Below are positions 1,216-57,918 of a stretch of DNA of 64,000 nt, piece after piece. A program made the translations under genes and the position numbers. The stretch comes from Agromyces mediolanus (GTDB taxonomy: Bacteria; Actinomycetota; Actinomycetes; Actinomycetales; Microbacteriaceae). The stretch covers positions 1 to 64,000 of the forward strand of contig NZ_BMRJ01000002.1 of NCBI RefSeq assembly GCF_014648575.1. The letters run 5' to 3'. Positions within the stretch are counted from its first letter, which is position 1; each line of letters starts with the position of its first letter. The notes beneath the pieces are model-generated. The model ran no database searches, was not told where the DNA came from, and saw only the letters and a list, made by a program, of their open reading frames with translations.

Positions 1216-1659
1216 CTAGTCGATGAGCCCGTCGGCCGCGAGGCGCCGGAGCACCTCGGCCCCGGCCGGCGGGCAGCGGTCGAGCTCGGCGGTCGTCACC
1301 CAGTGCAGTGCGCCGACCTCGGCCGAGGCCTTCGGCGAGGCATCCGTGCGCGTCAGGAAGACGCGCATGCGCACCATCCGCCCCTCGGGCTCGCCGTGCG
1401 CCTGCGTGACGACTTCGAAGAGCTCCTCGAGCTCGGCGGGATCGAGTTCGAGCGACACCTCCTCGCGAGCCTCGCGCGCGGCCGCCTCGGCCGCGGTCTC
1501 GCCGTCGTCGATCTTGCCGCCCGGCATGTAGTGCACCTCGCGCTCGCGCGCGGTCACCATCAGCACGCGGCGATCGCGGACGAGCGCGATCGCCGCGACG
1601 AGCAGATCGGGCAGGGCGGATGCCTCGGAGCCGCGCTCCGCCCCTGACTCCACGGCCAC
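1216..1659 (-). CDS. Nudix hydrolase, 147 aa
   Basis: Nudix enzymes cleave nucleoside diphosphates linked to other groups, using the GX5EX7REUXEEXGU box and a divalent metal. Here the box begins at the GK of PGGKIDDGE (residues about 46-52) and continues through AAREAREEVSLEL, so the general-base glutamates REAREE are intact and the usual Gly near the end is Ser. A beta-strand start (LLVAAIALVRDRRVLMV) and the length fit a single-domain enzyme. I chose GTG at 1659 because CGAGGA lies 5 nt upstream; GTG at 1653 is the alternative. It begins 14 bp after the glyS stop and so is probably co-transcribed. The substrate cannot be told; MutT-like sanitation is only one possibility. Confidence 0.85.
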   Translation of the reverse strand: MAVESGAERGSEASALPDLLVAAIALVRDRRVLMVTAREREVHYMPGGKIDDGETAAEAAAREAREEVSLELDPAELEELFEVVTQAHGEPEGRMVRMRVFLTRTDASPKASAEVGALHWVTTAELDRCPPAGAEVLRRLAADGLID

Positions 1660-49674: not shown

Positions 49675-49704
49675 GCGACGGATGCCGGTGGAGGCATCCG
49701 TCGC
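49675..49704 (-). terminator. 12-bp hairpin after the PEP-mutase-family gene
   Basis: GCGACGGATGCC and GGCATCCGTCGC pair perfectly around GGTGGA, 17 nt past the stop of the minus-strand gene and before the ABC genes. It is a good candidate for an intrinsic-type terminator, though no U-run follows, as is common at this GC. Confidence 0.55.
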
Positions 49705-53133: not shown

Positions 53134-53949
53134 TCAGTGCGGAGCGTGGTACTCCGCCTCGCCGCGGCGCCAGTAGCCCTTCACCACGAGCTGATCGGAC
53201 GCGAGGCCCCAGCGGTCGAGCACGAGCGCACGCGCCGGCTTCACGATCGCGTGCTCGGCGGCGACGAAGGCGAACACCTCGCCGGCGGGCCGGTCCTCGG
53301 GGCCGAGCGCATCGAGGGCCGCCACGAGCGCCTCGCCCTGCGGGCGCCCGTCGCGGTGCACCCAGCGCAGCTCGGTGCCGGCGGGGGCCTCGAGAGCGGG
53401 CCGGTGCGCGGCGTCGGGCACCTCGACGAGCACGAGTCCGCGGGGCGTCGCGTCGCCCTCGCGGGAGAGGCGGGCGAGGAAGCGACGGATCGCCGGCAGC
53501 GCCGTCTCGTCGCCCGCGAGCAGCCAGCCGTCGGGCTCGCCGGTGATCACCGTCGCGCCGCGCGGTCCGCCCACCCCGATGACCGAGCCGATCGGCGCGC
53601 GGTCGGCCCAGCGTCCGGCGATGCCGTGCTCGCCGTGCACGACGAACTCGATCTCGAGCACGCCGGCCTCGGCGTCCCAGGCGAGCGGGGTGTACTCCCG
53701 GCTCGGGGACTCGCGGAGCGCCCCGACGTCGAGCGCACCGGCATCGCCGTCGAAACCGAATCCTTCGGCCGGGCTTTCGCCGGGGAAGAACAGCCGGATG
53801 TGGTCGTCGCTGCCGAGCGAGTCGAAACCGCGCAGCGCCTCGCCCTCGAGGCGGAGGCGCAGGTAGTGCGGGGCCAGCCGCTCGCGGGCGGTCAGCGTGA
53901 CGGGGCGGAAGACGAGCTCGCGGGGCACGCGGTCGAGGGTGAAGGGCAT
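53134..53949 (-). CDS. Siderophore-interacting protein (ferric-siderophore reductase), 271 aa
   Basis: SIP family flavoprotein that reduces ferric siderophores in the cytoplasm to free the iron. The FAD site SREYTPLAWD (R-x-Y-T) and the FVVHGEHGIAGRWADRAPIGSVIGVGGPRG block are typical, with GWLLAGDETALPAIRRFL for the nucleotide domain and the ending GYWRRGEAEYH. It lies 41 bp after the ATPase gene and is the last gene of the iron operon. Confidence 0.92.
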   Translation of the reverse strand: MPFTLDRVPRELVFRPVTLTARERLAPHYLRLRLEGEALRGFDSLGSDDHIRLFFPGESPAEGFGFDGDAGALDVGALRESPSREYTPLAWDAEAGVLEIEFVVHGEHGIAGRWADRAPIGSVIGVGGPRGATVITGEPDGWLLAGDETALPAIRRFLARLSREGDATPRGLVLVEVPDAAHRPALEAPAGTELRWVHRDGRPQGEALVAALDALGPEDRPAGEVFAFVAAEHAIVKPARALVLDRWGLASDQLVVKGYWRRGEAEYHAPH

Positions 53950-53990: not shown

Positions 53991-54803
53991 TCAGTGCTCG
54001 GATGCGGATGCGGACCCGGTGCCCGCTGCGGCGGGCACGGCGTCCGGGCGGTAGTAGACGGCGAGGCGCTGGCCGCCGTGCTCCACGACGTCGACGGGGG
54101 TGTCGAAGACCGCAGAGAGCACCTCGGGCCGCATGATCTCCTCGGGCGTGCCCGAGGCGACGATCCGGCCGTCGGCGAGGGCGATGATGCGGTCGGCGTA
54201 GGCCGAGGCGAAGTTGACGTCGTGCACGACGAGCACGATCGTCTTGCCGAGCTCGTCCGCGGCGTCGCGCAGCCGCTGCATCATCGCCGCCGCGTGCCGC
54301 ATGTCGAGCGCCGCGAGCGGCTCGTCGAGCAGCACGACCTCGGTGTCCTGCGCGAGCACCATCGCGACGAAGGCGCGCTGGCGCTGCCCGCCCGAGAGCT
54401 CGTCGAGGAAGCGCTCCTCGAAGCCCTCCAGGTCGAGGAAGGCGAGCGCCCGGTCCACGGCCTCGCGGTCGGCGGCGGTCAGCCGGCCCTGCGAGTGCGG
54501 GAACCGGCCGAAGGACACGAGCTGGCGCACCGTGAGCCGGGCGACGAAGTGGTTCTCCTGCTTCAGGATCGAGACGACCTTCGCGAGCTCGCGCGGCTTC
54601 GCCGTGACGACGTCGAGGCCGCCGACCCGCACCCGCCCGCTGTCGGGGTCGAGCAGCCGCCCGACGATCGTGAGCAGGGTCGACTTGCCGGCCCCGTTCG
54701 GGCCGACGAGTGCGGTGAGCCCGCCCGAGGCGATCTCGAGGTCGACGGGTCCGAGCGCGCGAGTCGCCCGGTAGTGCTTGTCGACCGCTTCGATGGTGAT
54801 CAA
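53991..54803 (-). CDS. Siderophore ABC transporter ATP-binding protein, 270 aa
   Basis: FepC/FhuC-type ATPase: Walker A VGPNGAGKSTLL, signature ELSGGQRQRAFVA and Walker B EVVLLDEPLAALD, with the switch His in VLVVHDVNFAS. It couples ATP hydrolysis to ferric-siderophore import through the two preceding permeases. The ATG overlaps the permease stop by 4 nt. Confidence 0.94.
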   Translation of the reverse strand: MITIEAVDKHYRATRALGPVDLEIASGGLTALVGPNGAGKSTLLTIVGRLLDPDSGRVRVGGLDVVTAKPRELAKVVSILKQENHFVARLTVRQLVSFGRFPHSQGRLTAADREAVDRALAFLDLEGFEERFLDELSGGQRQRAFVAMVLAQDTEVVLLDEPLAALDMRHAAAMMQRLRDAADELGKTIVLVVHDVNFASAYADRIIALADGRIVASGTPEEIMRPEVLSAVFDTPVDVVEHGGQRLAVYYRPDAVPAAAGTGSASASEH

Positions 54804-55837
54804 CGCAGCCCCTTCCTGAGGATGACGATGAGGAACGCGAGCCCGCCGACGAACTCGATGACGATGCTGACGAGACCCGCGGCGGCGAAGACGTGCTGCA
54901 TGACGAAGTACGCGCCGAGCAGGGTCGCGAGGCCGAGCAGCACGGCGACGGGCAGCACCTGGCCGTGCCGATCGGAGGAGACGAACTGGTAGCTCATGAT
55001 CGCCACCAGGAAGCCGAAGAACGTCATCGGCCCGACCATGGTCGTCGACACCGAGACGAGCACGGCGACGACCACGAGGAGCACGACGATCTCACGCCGG
55101 TAGCGCAGGCCGAGGCTCGTCGCGGCATCCCGCCCGAGCGCGATCACGTCGAGCGCCGCGCGTCGCCGCCACGCCCACACCGCGATCGCCGCGACGACGA
55201 GGGCGGCCCACGGCAGCACCTCGGGGTTGCCGCGGCCGATGCTGCCGTAGAGCCGCGCGGCGAGCACGTCGAACTCGCTCGGCGTGAGCATCCGCTGCAG
55301 GAACGTCGAGACCGAGCCGAAGCCGACCCCGAGCACGACGCCGACGAGCAGCAGCACGTGCAGGTTCGCCCGTTTCCCGGAGAACAGCCAGCCGTAGAGC
55401 AGTGTCGCGAAGAGCACCATGAGCGCGCTCTGCGCGACGATCTTGCCGACGCCCTCGACCTGCGTGGCCGCCATCCCGAACACGAAGACGAGCGCCGTCT
55501 GCATCAGGGTGTAGAGCGCGTCGAAGCCGAGGATCGACGGCGTCAGGATGCGGTTGCCGGTGGCCGTGTGGAAGAGCACCGTCGCGAGGGCCTGCGCGGC
55601 GGCGACGAGCGCGATCGTCGCGACGGCGACCGAGCGGCTCTGCACGATGACCCAGAAGCCGGGCTGGTCGGCCGGCACCGGGTTGCCCCACACGAGCAGT
55701 CCCACGGCGAAGAGCGCGGCGGCTGCTCCGGCGACGATCGCGGCGAGGGGGACGCGCCGCTCGCGCGTCGTGGCCGCGGCGGCGGGTCGGGCGGATGCCT
55801 CGGCGCCGACGGTCGGGACGGATGCCTCGGCGCTCAC
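54800..55837 (-). CDS. Siderophore ABC transporter permease 2 (FecCD type), 345 aa
   Basis: FecCD-family permease, about nine to ten helices: NRILTPSILGFDALYTLMQ, LHVLLLVGVVLGVGFGSVSTFLQRM, RLYGSIGRGNPEVLPWA, TMVGPMTFFGFLVAIMSYQF and RHGQVLPVAVLLGLATLLGAYF are the usual conserved loops. GTG 55837 overlaps the stop of permease 1 (GTGA). The first about 25 residues are a variable cytoplasmic start with A-S-A-repeat. Confidence 0.92.
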   Translation of the reverse strand: MSAEASVPTVGAEASARPAAAATTRERRVPLAAIVAGAAAALFAVGLLVWGNPVPADQPGFWVIVQSRSVAVATIALVAAAQALATVLFHTATGNRILTPSILGFDALYTLMQTALVFVFGMAATQVEGVGKIVAQSALMVLFATLLYGWLFSGKRANLHVLLLVGVVLGVGFGSVSTFLQRMLTPSEFDVLAARLYGSIGRGNPEVLPWAALVVAAIAVWAWRRRAALDVIALGRDAATSLGLRYRREIVVLLVVVAVLVSVSTTMVGPMTFFGFLVAIMSYQFVSSDRHGQVLPVAVLLGLATLLGAYFVMQHVFAAAGLVSIVIEFVGGLAFLIVILRKGLR

Positions 55838-56772
55838 GAGCGCACCGCCCGCTGCCGGAGGAGCAGGGCGATGAACACCGCGCTGCCGACGATGCCGAGC
55901 ACCATCGACACGGGCACCTCGAACGGCATCCGCACGGTGCGCCCGACGAGGTCGCAGGCGGTCACGAGCACGACGCCGCCGACGCAGACCCACGGCAGGT
56001 TCGAGCGGAGGTCGTCGCCGCGCACGAGGGAGACGATGTTCGGCACGACGAGTCCGAGGAACGGCAGGAAGCCGACCACCACGACGGTCACGCCAGTGGC
56101 GACCGCCACGAGGCTCGTGCCGAGGAGCACGACGGCCTCGTAGCGGACGCCGACGGTGGTCGCGACGTCGCGACCGAGCCCGGCGACCGTGAGCCGGTCG
56201 GCGACGACGAAGACGAGGATCGTGACGATCGCGACGGCCCAGAGCACCTCGTAGCGGCCGCGGACGACGCTCGTGAAGCTGCCCATGAACCAGGTGCCGA
56301 GCAGTTGCAGCGCGTTGTTCGTCGCGGCGAGGTAGGTGGTGACGGCGCTCACGACGGCGCCGAGCATGATGCCGATGAGCGGCACCACGAGGGTCGAGCG
56401 GAGCGCGATGCGGCGGAGCACCGCGAGGAAGACGAGGGTGCCGGCGAAGGCCGCGAGGGAGGCGACGAGCATCTGCACGGGCAGCGGTGCGGTCGGCACG
56501 ACGAGGAGGGTGACGAGGAGCCCCAGCGCGGCCCACTCGGTGGTGCCGGAGGTGGTGGCGTCGACGAAGCGGTTCTGGGTGAGCATCTGCATCACGAGGC
56601 CGCTGACGGCCATCGCGCAGCCCGAGAGCACGAGCGCGACGGTGCGCGGCACGCGGGTGATCCAGAACATCTCGCCGCCGCCCTCCGCGCCGACGACGTC
56701 GTAGACGCCCACGAACAGGGAGGCGGCGAGCAGGGCGATCGCGAGCGCGATCGCCGCGGGCAGGGCGAGCAC
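55834..56772 (-). CDS. Siderophore ABC transporter permease 1 (FecCD type), 312 aa or longer
   Basis: FecCD-family permease: ITRVPRTVALVLSGCAMAVSGLVMQMLTQNRFVDATTSGTTE is partly visible as RVPRTVALVLSG and MQMLTQNRF, plus VVVGFLPFLGLVVPNIVSL, the classical loop near the end. The start is unclear. GTG 56772 lies only 2 nt from a 14-bp hairpin and lacks a ribosome site. The only in-frame alternative before the binding-protein stop is CTG at 56856, which overlaps that stop as CTGA, just as GTGA and ATGA do elsewhere in the operon. With CTG the protein would have 340 residues and a 28-residue cytoplasmic start. Confidence 0.88.
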   Translation of the reverse strand: MLALPAAIALAIALLAASLFVGVYDVVGAEGGGEMFWITRVPRTVALVLSGCAMAVSGLVMQMLTQNRFVDATTSGTTEWAALGLLVTLLVVPTAPLPVQMLVASLAAFAGTLVFLAVLRRIALRSTLVVPLIGIMLGAVVSAVTTYLAATNNALQLLGTWFMGSFTSVVRGRYEVLWAVAIVTILVFVVADRLTVAGLGRDVATTVGVRYEAVVLLGTSLVAVATGVTVVVVGFLPFLGLVVPNIVSLVRGDDLRSNLPWVCVGGVVLVTACDLVGRTVRMPFEVPVSMVLGIVGSAVFIALLLRQRAVRS

Positions 56773-56774
56773 GC

Positions 56775-56806
56775 GGAGGCGCGCGCCGCGAACGGCGCGC
56801 GCCTCC
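56775..56806 (-). other. Intercistronic hairpin in the siderophore operon
   Basis: GGAGGCGCGCGCCG-(4)-CGGCGCGCGCCTCC: perfect 14-bp arms; on the transcribed sense (minus) the loop is TTCG, a very stable tetraloop. It lies 46 nt after the binding-protein stop. Likely role: partial termination or mRNA protection that gives more binding protein than permease. Confidence 0.7.
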
Positions 56807-56852
56807 GGCCGGGCGGCGGGGTCTGCCGCCCGAGCGTGGGACGTGTCGAGGC

Positions 56853-57842
56853 TCAGGATGCCGCCCCGAACGCCTTCGCGAGCTGCTCGTAGACCCCGGT
56901 GTAGGTCTGGATGTCCTCGCGGAGGTAGAACGCCGGGTCGACGTAGACGACCTGGCCGCGCTTCACGGCCGTGACGTTCGCGAGCGCCTCCGAGCCTTCG
57001 ATGAGCTGCTTGGCGGGCACGTAGCCCTCGGCGTCGGTCATGGCGCCCTCGCGGTCGATCACGACGATCCAGTCGGGGTTCGCCGCGGCGATCGCCTCGA
57101 CGCTGATGTCGTCGCCGTGCGAGGTGTCGTCGGCGGCCTGCTCGATGCCGGGCTTCAGATCGAGCGCGGGGTAGAGCATGCCGAGGCCGCGGCCGGTGAC
57201 CGGGGCGATGTAGGAGATCTCGCCGCCCGAGGTCATCAGACTGACGACGGTCGAGCTGCCGTCGTAGGCCTCCTTGGCGTCGGCGATCGACTGCTCGAAG
57301 TCGGCGACGATCTTCGCCGCCTCGTCCTCGCGGTCGAAGATCTGGCCGAGGATCTCGACCTGGCGCACGAGCTCGGCGGCGGGGTCCTCGCCCTCGCGCG
57401 GCGCGATCTCGATGACGGCGGCGTCGGGGTTCTGGCTCACGATCTGGTCGTACGACTCGGCGAAGCGGTAGCCGCCGATGATGAGCTCGGGCTGGGCCGC
57501 GACGATCGACTCGAGGTTCGGCTCGAAGTGGGCGCCCACGTCGAGCACCGCCTCGTCGCCGGTGTACTCGGGCCAGATGTCGGTGCCCATGACGCCCTTG
57601 GGCGCCGCGGCGAGCGGGATGTCCCAGGCGGAGAGGGTCTCGAAGACGTGGTTGTCGAGGGCGACGACGCGCTTCGGGTTCACCGGGACCTCGACCTCGC
57701 CGTGGTTGTCCTCGATCGTGACCGTGGTGGCCGCGGCGGTGCTCGGTTCGGCCTCGGCCGTGCCGCTCGCGCAGCCGGCGAGGAGGAGGCTCGCGGCGGC
57801 GAGCGCCCCGGCGGCGGCGAAGATCGACTGGCGTCTGGGCAT
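56853..57842 (-). CDS. Siderophore-binding lipoprotein (ABC substrate-binding), 329 aa
   Basis: Signal peptide with lipobox L-L-L-A-G-C, so anchored outside the membrane. It has the FepB/FecB-type periplasmic-binding fold: VPVNPKRVVALDNHVFETLSAWD, LESIVAAQPELIIGGY, VEAIAAANPDWIVVIDREG and VKRGQVVYVDPAFYL. ATG 57842 gives a normal signal peptide; TTG 57872 is less likely. It is the first gene of the operon and lies under a DtxR/IdeR box. Its conserved Glu/Asp loops suggest the usual salt bridges to the permease Arg residues. Confidence 0.93.
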   Translation of the reverse strand: MPRRQSIFAAAGALAAASLLLAGCASGTAEAEPSTAAATTVTIEDNHGEVEVPVNPKRVVALDNHVFETLSAWDIPLAAAPKGVMGTDIWPEYTGDEAVLDVGAHFEPNLESIVAAQPELIIGGYRFAESYDQIVSQNPDAAVIEIAPREGEDPAAELVRQVEILGQIFDREDEAAKIVADFEQSIADAKEAYDGSSTVVSLMTSGGEISYIAPVTGRGLGMLYPALDLKPGIEQAADDTSHGDDISVEAIAAANPDWIVVIDREGAMTDAEGYVPAKQLIEGSEALANVTAVKRGQVVYVDPAFYLREDIQTYTGVYEQLAKAFGAAS

Positions 57843-57899: not shown

Positions 57900-57918
57900 T
57901 AAGGTGAGGCTAACCTTA
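57900..57918. promoter_or_regulatory. DtxR/IdeR iron box of the siderophore operon
   Basis: TAAGGTGAGGCTAACCTTA, 19 bp, near-perfect dyad (one mismatched pair and the usual non-palindromic centre). It matches the corynebacterial/mycobacterial consensus TTAGGTTAGGCTAACCTAA at most positions. On the minus strand it covers a TAGCCT -10, with TTGAGA 18 bp upstream, so iron-loaded repressor would block transcription. Confidence 0.88.

What the first reader, a model, noticed from the sequence alone, without database searches (positions are those of the whole stretch)
56772..56856. Hairpin with 14-bp arms and TTCG loop, and a likely CTG start, in the siderophore operon
Seen: the GTG start of permease 1 stands 2 nt after a perfect hairpin and lacks a ribosome site. 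The only in-frame upstream candidate is CTG at 56856, which overlaps the binding-protein stop as CTGA; every other overlapping junction in this operon is of this 4-nt type. Inference: either a rare CTG start puts the hairpin inside the coding region, or the hairpin reduces permease output relative to binding protein.
Basis: partly seen in the sequence, partly recalled or inferred. Interest (0 to 1): 0.55.

Follow-up and report, generated by a model that had tools for sequence, protein, structure and literature searches.

The report
Conserved hairpin between binding-protein and permease genes
A strong RNA hairpin sits where the binding-protein gene ends and the membrane-channel gene begins in an iron-uptake operon of a soil bacterium; such hairpins recur at this kind of junction in its genome and its relatives, and most likely keep the binding protein more abundant than the channel, a known kind of control.

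Summary
The hairpin is real: 15-bp perfect arms (not 14), 56774-56807, minus strand, the window's only perfect hairpin of 14 bp or more; 20 simulated windows gave none that long. It lies between a siderophore-binding lipoprotein and a FecCD permease in an Agromyces operon. In 54 of 81 loci compared, this junction carries the strongest hairpin of its locus (4.9 expected). In this genome 22 of 43 binding-protein/permease junctions, from three binding-protein families, carry one, against 1 of 458 coding windows and 0 of 17 permease/permease junctions. Stems covary; no U-tract follows. Best reading: a barrier to 3'-5' decay that stabilises binding-protein mRNA, as in malEFG and other E. coli operons, where most such hairpins also lie inside the downstream coding region. 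Better support: the next orthologs start upstream of the hairpin, basic residues precede TM1 in 80 of 81 translations, and two other Agromyces have no start but CTG before TM1. No expression data.

The parts
56774..56807 (-). main hairpin, 15-bp perfect GC-rich stem, TTCG loop, +48 to +81 counted from the first base (0) of the binding-protein stop codon
   Evidence: covariation in Agromyces
56810..56832 (-). second, smaller hairpin, 8-bp arms and 7-nt loop (CGGGCGGC...GCCGCCCG)
   Evidence: 9-bp version in L083
56853..57842 (-). siderophore-type substrate-binding lipoprotein (PF01497), ATG start read from the sequence, stop TGA
   Evidence: lipobox LAGC read by eye in the translation
55834..56856 (-). 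FecCD permease 1 (PF01032) if started at CTG 56856 (preferred); GTG 56772 is the alternative start
54800..55837 (-). FecCD permease 2, GTGA overlap with permease 1
53991..54803 (-). ABC ATPase, TTGA overlap with permease 2
53134..53949 (-). siderophore-interacting protein (PF04954/PF08021), not overlapping
57900..57918 (-). DtxR/IdeR-like iron box upstream of the operon, 3 mismatches to a recalled consensus
   Evidence: matched on the + strand, near-palindrome; expected by chance 0.00

Best explanation
The hairpin is a selected RNA structure at the binding-protein/permease junction that sets unequal expression inside one operon. Most likely mechanism: after endonucleolytic cuts in the less translated permease part, 3'-5' exonucleases are stopped at the hairpin, so the binding-protein mRNA survives while permease mRNA is lost. 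In this clade permease 1 is most likely started at CTG 56856, in a 4-nt overlap coupled to binding-protein termination, so the hairpin lies inside the permease coding region (codons 17-28); the weak start would lower permease output further. Shown: the hairpin, its recurrence, its covariation, no U-tract, low divergence of the region. Inferred: the decay mechanism, the effect on the ratio, and use of CTG.
For: Recurrence: strongest hairpin of the locus in 54 of 81 loci (4.9 expected; median -25.7 against -7.9 kcal/mol). Own genome: 22 of 43 binding-protein/permease junctions at -20 kcal/mol or lower (PF01497 1 of 3, PF01547 16 of 24, PF00496 5 of 16), against 1 of 458 coding windows and 0 of 17 permease/permease junctions; 4 FecCD/FecCD junctions gave -11.0 to -12.9. 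Covariation: in 5 distinct Agromyces sequences 4 of 15 pairs change on both sides, 96% of cells paired, covariation score reached by 4 of 500 shuffles, lower in every slid version; 6 Leucobacter and 6 Cellulomonas-type stems also show compensatory changes. No U-tract: mean 1.59 T in 8 nt after the stem against 1.34 expected, 1 of 49 with four or more; mean 1.0 in 22 own-genome cases. CTG: scanning to 15 nt past the GTG-equivalent codon, orthologs L084, L086, L087 have no canonical start after the hairpin and L085 only a TTG at the edge of TM1; all four have ATG/GTG at +8 to +12. Basic residues before TM1 in 80 of 81 translations, absent if GTG is used. L089 and L090 have only CTG before TM1, with strong Shine-Dalgarno pairing (-11.3). 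In the 80 nt, 3 of 4 changes against the two nearest genomes fall on third codon positions, and divergence is below the permease third-position rate (P 0.003 and 0.002). Precedent: PMC5927463 sections 7 and 9.
Against: No RNA or protein data. In 27 of 81 loci the junction hairpin is not the strongest of the locus, and 32 of 81 do not reach -20, among them all 5 Pseudoclavibacter and three distant Agromyces permeases L091-L093. 21 of 43 own-genome junctions do not reach -20, including the two other siderophore operons L095 and L096. L083 has a C-C mismatch in the stem and is counted in the 49 through its smaller hairpin. The number of further pair types is not exceptional (110 of 500 shuffles reach it) and only 5 sequences were used. 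A coding hairpin would be opened by translating ribosomes. CTGA is common by default, and low divergence could reflect hairpin constraint (outside the main hairpin P is 0.06 and 0.008). Relatives within a genus are not independent.
Confidence: 0.68

Rival explanations
1. The hairpin is a leaky internal transcription terminator between binding-protein and permease genes, so fewer transcripts reach the permease.
For: Stem-loops downstream of binding-protein genes act this way in cellulolytic Clostridia (PMC9045158 abstract and passages); same position, long GC-rich stem here.
Against: No U-rich tract: CGTGCTCG follows the stem and T is hardly enriched over 49 loci (1.59 against 1.34). In that paper a stem without its U-rich tail gave only the read-through transcript. 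Terminators without a U-tract have been proposed for actinobacteria (recalled, not tested).
Confidence: 0.17
2. Permease 1 starts at GTG 56772; the hairpin is intergenic and blocks or delays initiation there.
For: GTG is an accepted start and is present in the two nearest genomes; in 10 other loci, 9 of them Microbacterium, no canonical start precedes the hairpin and an ATG follows it after 6-15 nt.
Against: The stem ends 1 nt before GTG, against 6-15 nt in those 10 loci; Shine-Dalgarno -1.7; opening cost 30.8 against 15.7 kcal/mol at CTG, although permease 2's GTG also costs 27.3. The protein would begin directly at TM1 without the basic residues seen in 80 of 81 translations. Orthologs L084, L086, L087 have no start there.
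Confidence: 0.25
3. The inverted repeat is a by-product of a GC-rich, arginine/alanine-rich N-terminal peptide, without RNA function.
For: Peptide PE(A/V)R..RGARLR is partly conserved in Agromyces.
Against: Compensatory changes keep pairing while residues change; in Microbacterium loci the hairpin precedes the only canonical start; coding windows reach -20 in only 1 of 458.
Confidence: 0.03
4. The palindrome is a DNA-binding site or a dispersed repeat element.
For: It is palindromic.
Against: The 22 own-genome hairpins differ in sequence (read), stems differ between genera, and the 301-nt query had only partial second matches in the genome. A separate iron box lies upstream of the operon.
Confidence: 0.02

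Closest known systems
Differential decay of malEFG and other E. coli operons (Dar and Sorek 2018, PMC5927463, sections 7 and 9 and passages read; Newbury et al. 1987, cited there, not read)
   Same: Binding-protein gene upstream, permease after; stable hairpin at the junction; no U-tract; in that study 17 of 26 protective hairpins lie inside the downstream coding sequence.
   Different: No decay measurement here; other phylum; in malEFG itself the structure is intergenic; here stems differ from operon to operon and the permease start appears to be CTG.
Internal terminators of ABC importer operons in cellulolytic Clostridia (Wu et al. 2022, PMC9045158, abstract and passages)
   Same: Stem-loops found mostly downstream of 5' binding-protein genes, unequal expression of binding protein and translocator.
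   Different: Those carry U-rich tracts needed for termination; here T is hardly enriched.
Selective RNA processing and stabilisation operons of Clostridium (PMC4423207, PMC8219983; search listings with the start of the abstract only)
   Same: Stem-loop at the 3' end of a gene sets stoichiometry.
   Different: Not tested here: no processing sites known for this operon.

Membership tests
Protective hairpins of differentially decaying operons | stable hairpin at the end of the more-needed upstream gene | tested here: met
   15 bp, -35.5 kcal/mol, after the binding-protein stop
Protective hairpins of differentially decaying operons | no uridine tract after the stem | tested here: met
Protective hairpins of differentially decaying operons | structure conserved in relatives | tested here: met
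   not in all: strongest of the locus in 54 of 81, -20 or lower in 49 of 81
Protective hairpins of differentially decaying operons | upstream segment decays more slowly; 3' ends map just after the hairpin | not testable with these tools
   needs a rifampicin time course and term-seq
Intrinsic (internal) transcription terminator | GC-rich stem | tested here: met
Intrinsic (internal) transcription terminator | U-rich tract after the stem | tested here: not met
   CGTGCTCG follows
Non-canonical (CTG) translation start | no canonical start between CTG and the conserved protein | tested here: inconclusive
   GTG 56772 exists in the window clade; in L089 and L090 none before TM1
Non-canonical (CTG) translation start | N-terminal peptide or initiation peak at CTG | not testable with these tools
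   needs N-terminal proteomics or ribosome profiling

The most novel reading that the evidence does not exclude
In Agromyces, permease output after a binding-protein gene is tuned by two coupled devices: a coding-region hairpin that protects the binding-protein mRNA, and a weak CTG start read only by ribosomes that have just terminated at the overlapping stop. In the window clade the codon at +8, GTG in L085, reads GAC, leaving only CTG upstream of the hairpin; L089/L090 have CTG with a different hairpin. Weak coupled starts would keep ribosomes from opening the hairpin.
Probability: 0.25. Interest if true: 0.5.

Novelty: new member of a known kind. Interest (0 to 1): 0.36.

Why it matters
It explains an odd hairpin as one case of a rule: in this Agromyces genome about half of the binding-protein/permease junctions examined carry a strong hairpin, each of different sequence, and relatives of this operon carry one too. 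That extends a mechanism known from E. coli and, in terminator form, from Clostridia, gives a simple genome-wide prediction about mRNA ends and half-lives, and warns that permease starts after such hairpins may be misannotated.

Tried and rejected
Tried and set aside: hairpin as repeat element or DNA site (other matches are partial; stems differ). Peptide by-product. Intrinsic terminator: no U-tract. The CTGA overlap as evidence for the CTG start: rejected as near-default; in the own genome L118 and L129 also have CTGA in frame but a GTG or ATG after the hairpin. Opening energy as a test of starts: not decisive, because permease 2's GTG, a coupled start, is nearly as closed (27.3). Paper searches: the listings showed nothing on actinobacterial binding-protein/permease hairpins (two returned no paper; 27 was useless because 'malE' matched 'male'); on CTG starts gave only listings that I did not follow. 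I therefore do not claim that the actinobacterial rule is unpublished.

Limits: the hairpin finder scores perfect stems only (G-U allowed), so bulged stems are missed (L023, L034, L035 fold strongly as a whole). Of 85 loci, 4 (L009-L012) were dropped before counting as duplicates of L082, L083, L084, L086; the 81 include the window's own locus L081. In one search the permease/permease control used the 30 PF00528 loci fetched out of 120 matches, of which 17 had a second permease close by; only three binding-protein families were searched (54 genes, 43 with a permease close behind). In one search, 31 of the 43 junctions were classified: the 22 with a hairpin and 9 of the 21 without. Start classes were scanned from 31 nt before the stop to 15 nt past the GTG-equivalent codon. 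Genus counts in the full report were made by hand from the lists.

Codons 17-29 was corrected to 17-28.

Full report
What is there. The window lies in an Agromyces genome: the nearest named records for the permease are Agromyces soli (99%) and A. mediolanus RA 14A.10 (98%). The operon on the minus strand is a binding lipoprotein (PF01497), two FecCD permeases (PF01032), an ABC ATPase and a siderophore-interacting protein, preceded by a DtxR-like iron box at 57900-57918 (consensus recalled). The hairpin has 15-bp perfect arms at 56774-56788 and 56793-56807. It is the only perfect hairpin of 14 bp or more in 64 kb, and 20 simulated windows gave none that long. The region folds with z = -4.1. A second small hairpin lies at 56810-56832.

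It is one of many. I took 72 named loci and 13 from the genus search, including the window's own, located a binding-protein stop in all 85, and dropped 4 duplicates. In 54 of 81 the junction holds the strongest perfect-stem hairpin of the locus, against 4.9 expected; medians are -25.7 and -7.9 kcal/mol. 49 of 81 reach -20: by hand count from the lists, 10 of 13 Agromyces (L083 through its smaller hairpin; the three misses, L091-L093, are distant permeases), 13 of 17 Leucobacter, 9 of 21 Microbacterium, 5 of 6 Cellulomonas, 0 of 5 Pseudoclavibacter (3 of these 5 still have the strongest hairpin of their locus). Sequences differ between genera, so shared ancestry of the letters does not explain it, but relatives within a genus are not independent.

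It is a habit of the genome. In the window's own genome, among binding proteins of three families (PF01497 7 genes, PF01547 29, PF00496 18), 43 are followed closely by a permease, and 22 of these junctions carry a hairpin at -20 or lower: 1 of 3, 16 of 24 and 5 of 16 by family. Controls: 1 of 458 windows inside binding-protein genes, 0 of 17 permease/permease junctions, 4 FecCD/FecCD junctions at -11.0 to -12.9, and 3 of 11 binding-protein ends without a permease close behind. The two other binding-protein/FecCD junctions, L095 and L096, do not reach it (-9.1 and -13.2).

It is selected as RNA structure. Five distinct Agromyces hairpins give 96% paired cells, 4 of 15 pairs with changes on both sides, and a covariation score reached by 4 of 500 shuffles; sliding the partner lowers it in every case, while the number of further pair types is not exceptional (110 of 500). 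Six Leucobacter and six Cellulomonas-type stems show compensatory changes as well. The one break inside the Agromyces stem is a C-C mismatch in L083, which is a synonymous change in the CTG frame.

Where the permease starts. Of the 49 loci with a hairpin at -20 or lower, 14 have a canonical start only before the hairpin, 2 have only CTG, 6 have a start inside the stem and none after, 2 have none, and 25 have a start after it, some of them also before it. So the hairpin follows the binding-protein stop while the permease start lies on either side of it. In the four next Agromyces orthologs (L084-L087) a start codon, ATG or GTG, lies at +8 to +12, upstream of the hairpin. The window clade has GAC at +8, where L085 has GTG (read), and only CTG remains upstream. 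The CTGA overlap alone proves little: of 24 loci with a TGA stop whose frame cannot use it, 19 show CTGA. Better evidence: GTG 56772 would remove the basic residues before TM1 that 80 of 81 translations have (in-frame translations, not proven proteins); it has weak Shine-Dalgarno pairing (-1.7 against -6.3 for CTG) and lies 1 nt from the stem; in 80 nt only 1 and 3 differences separate the two nearest genomes, below the permease third-position rate (P 0.003 and 0.002), 3 of the 4 at third codon positions. Outside the main hairpin the same test gives 0.06 and 0.008. The permease is under selection: 72 of 80 differences over the 900 nt from GTG 56772 fall on third positions (sum over both comparisons). 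L089 and L090 have no start but CTG before TM1, with strong Shine-Dalgarno pairing (-11.3) upstream. I put the CTG start at about 0.7.

How it works. Hairpins that protect an upstream gene from 3'-5' decay are established for malEFG and other E. coli operons; [quoted passage not shown]). The present hairpin, 50 to 83 nt into the CTG-started gene, fits. The rival is a leaky terminator as in cellulolytic Clostridia (PMC9045158: abstract and passages), but those rely on a U-rich tract, and T is hardly enriched after these stems (1.59 against 1.34 expected; 1.0 in 22 own-genome cases). No expression data were available, so the mechanism is inferred from position, structure and precedent.

Verdict. 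What is worth attention is the rule across this genome and its relatives, and the possible CTG starts.

Noticed in passing
L088, junction after the binding-protein stop: This Agromyces ortholog has no in-frame ATG, GTG, TTG or CTG between the binding-protein end and TM1 (only ATC at +11; next GTG inside TM1), yet the permease frame is open. Either a very unusual start or a sequence error.
   Followed up: partly
L089 and L090, junction: Permease 52% identical to the window's, with CTG as the only start candidate before TM1, a GAGGGG Shine-Dalgarno just upstream and a 13-bp hairpin after the CTG.
   Followed up: partly
own genome, L113, L121, L123, L128: Other transporter operons can be read with the window's layout: possible permease start (ATGA or GTGA) overlapping the binding-protein stop, strong hairpin between +19 and +99. 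The starts are not proven.
   Followed up: partly
own genome, L120, L134 and L186: Three binding-protein genes without a permease close behind also end in hairpins of -20 or lower (-49.3, -27.9, -22.1), possibly terminators or the same element.
   Followed up: no
window 1566-1597 and 49675-49704: The only two other perfect hairpins with stems of 11 bp or more in the window (13 and 12 bp); about one such is expected by chance.
   Followed up: no
window 54801-54803: The ATPase of the operon appears to start with TTG in a TTGA overlap with good Shine-Dalgarno pairing (-11.2), so if CTG is used three successive overlapping starts of the operon are all non-ATG.
   Followed up: no
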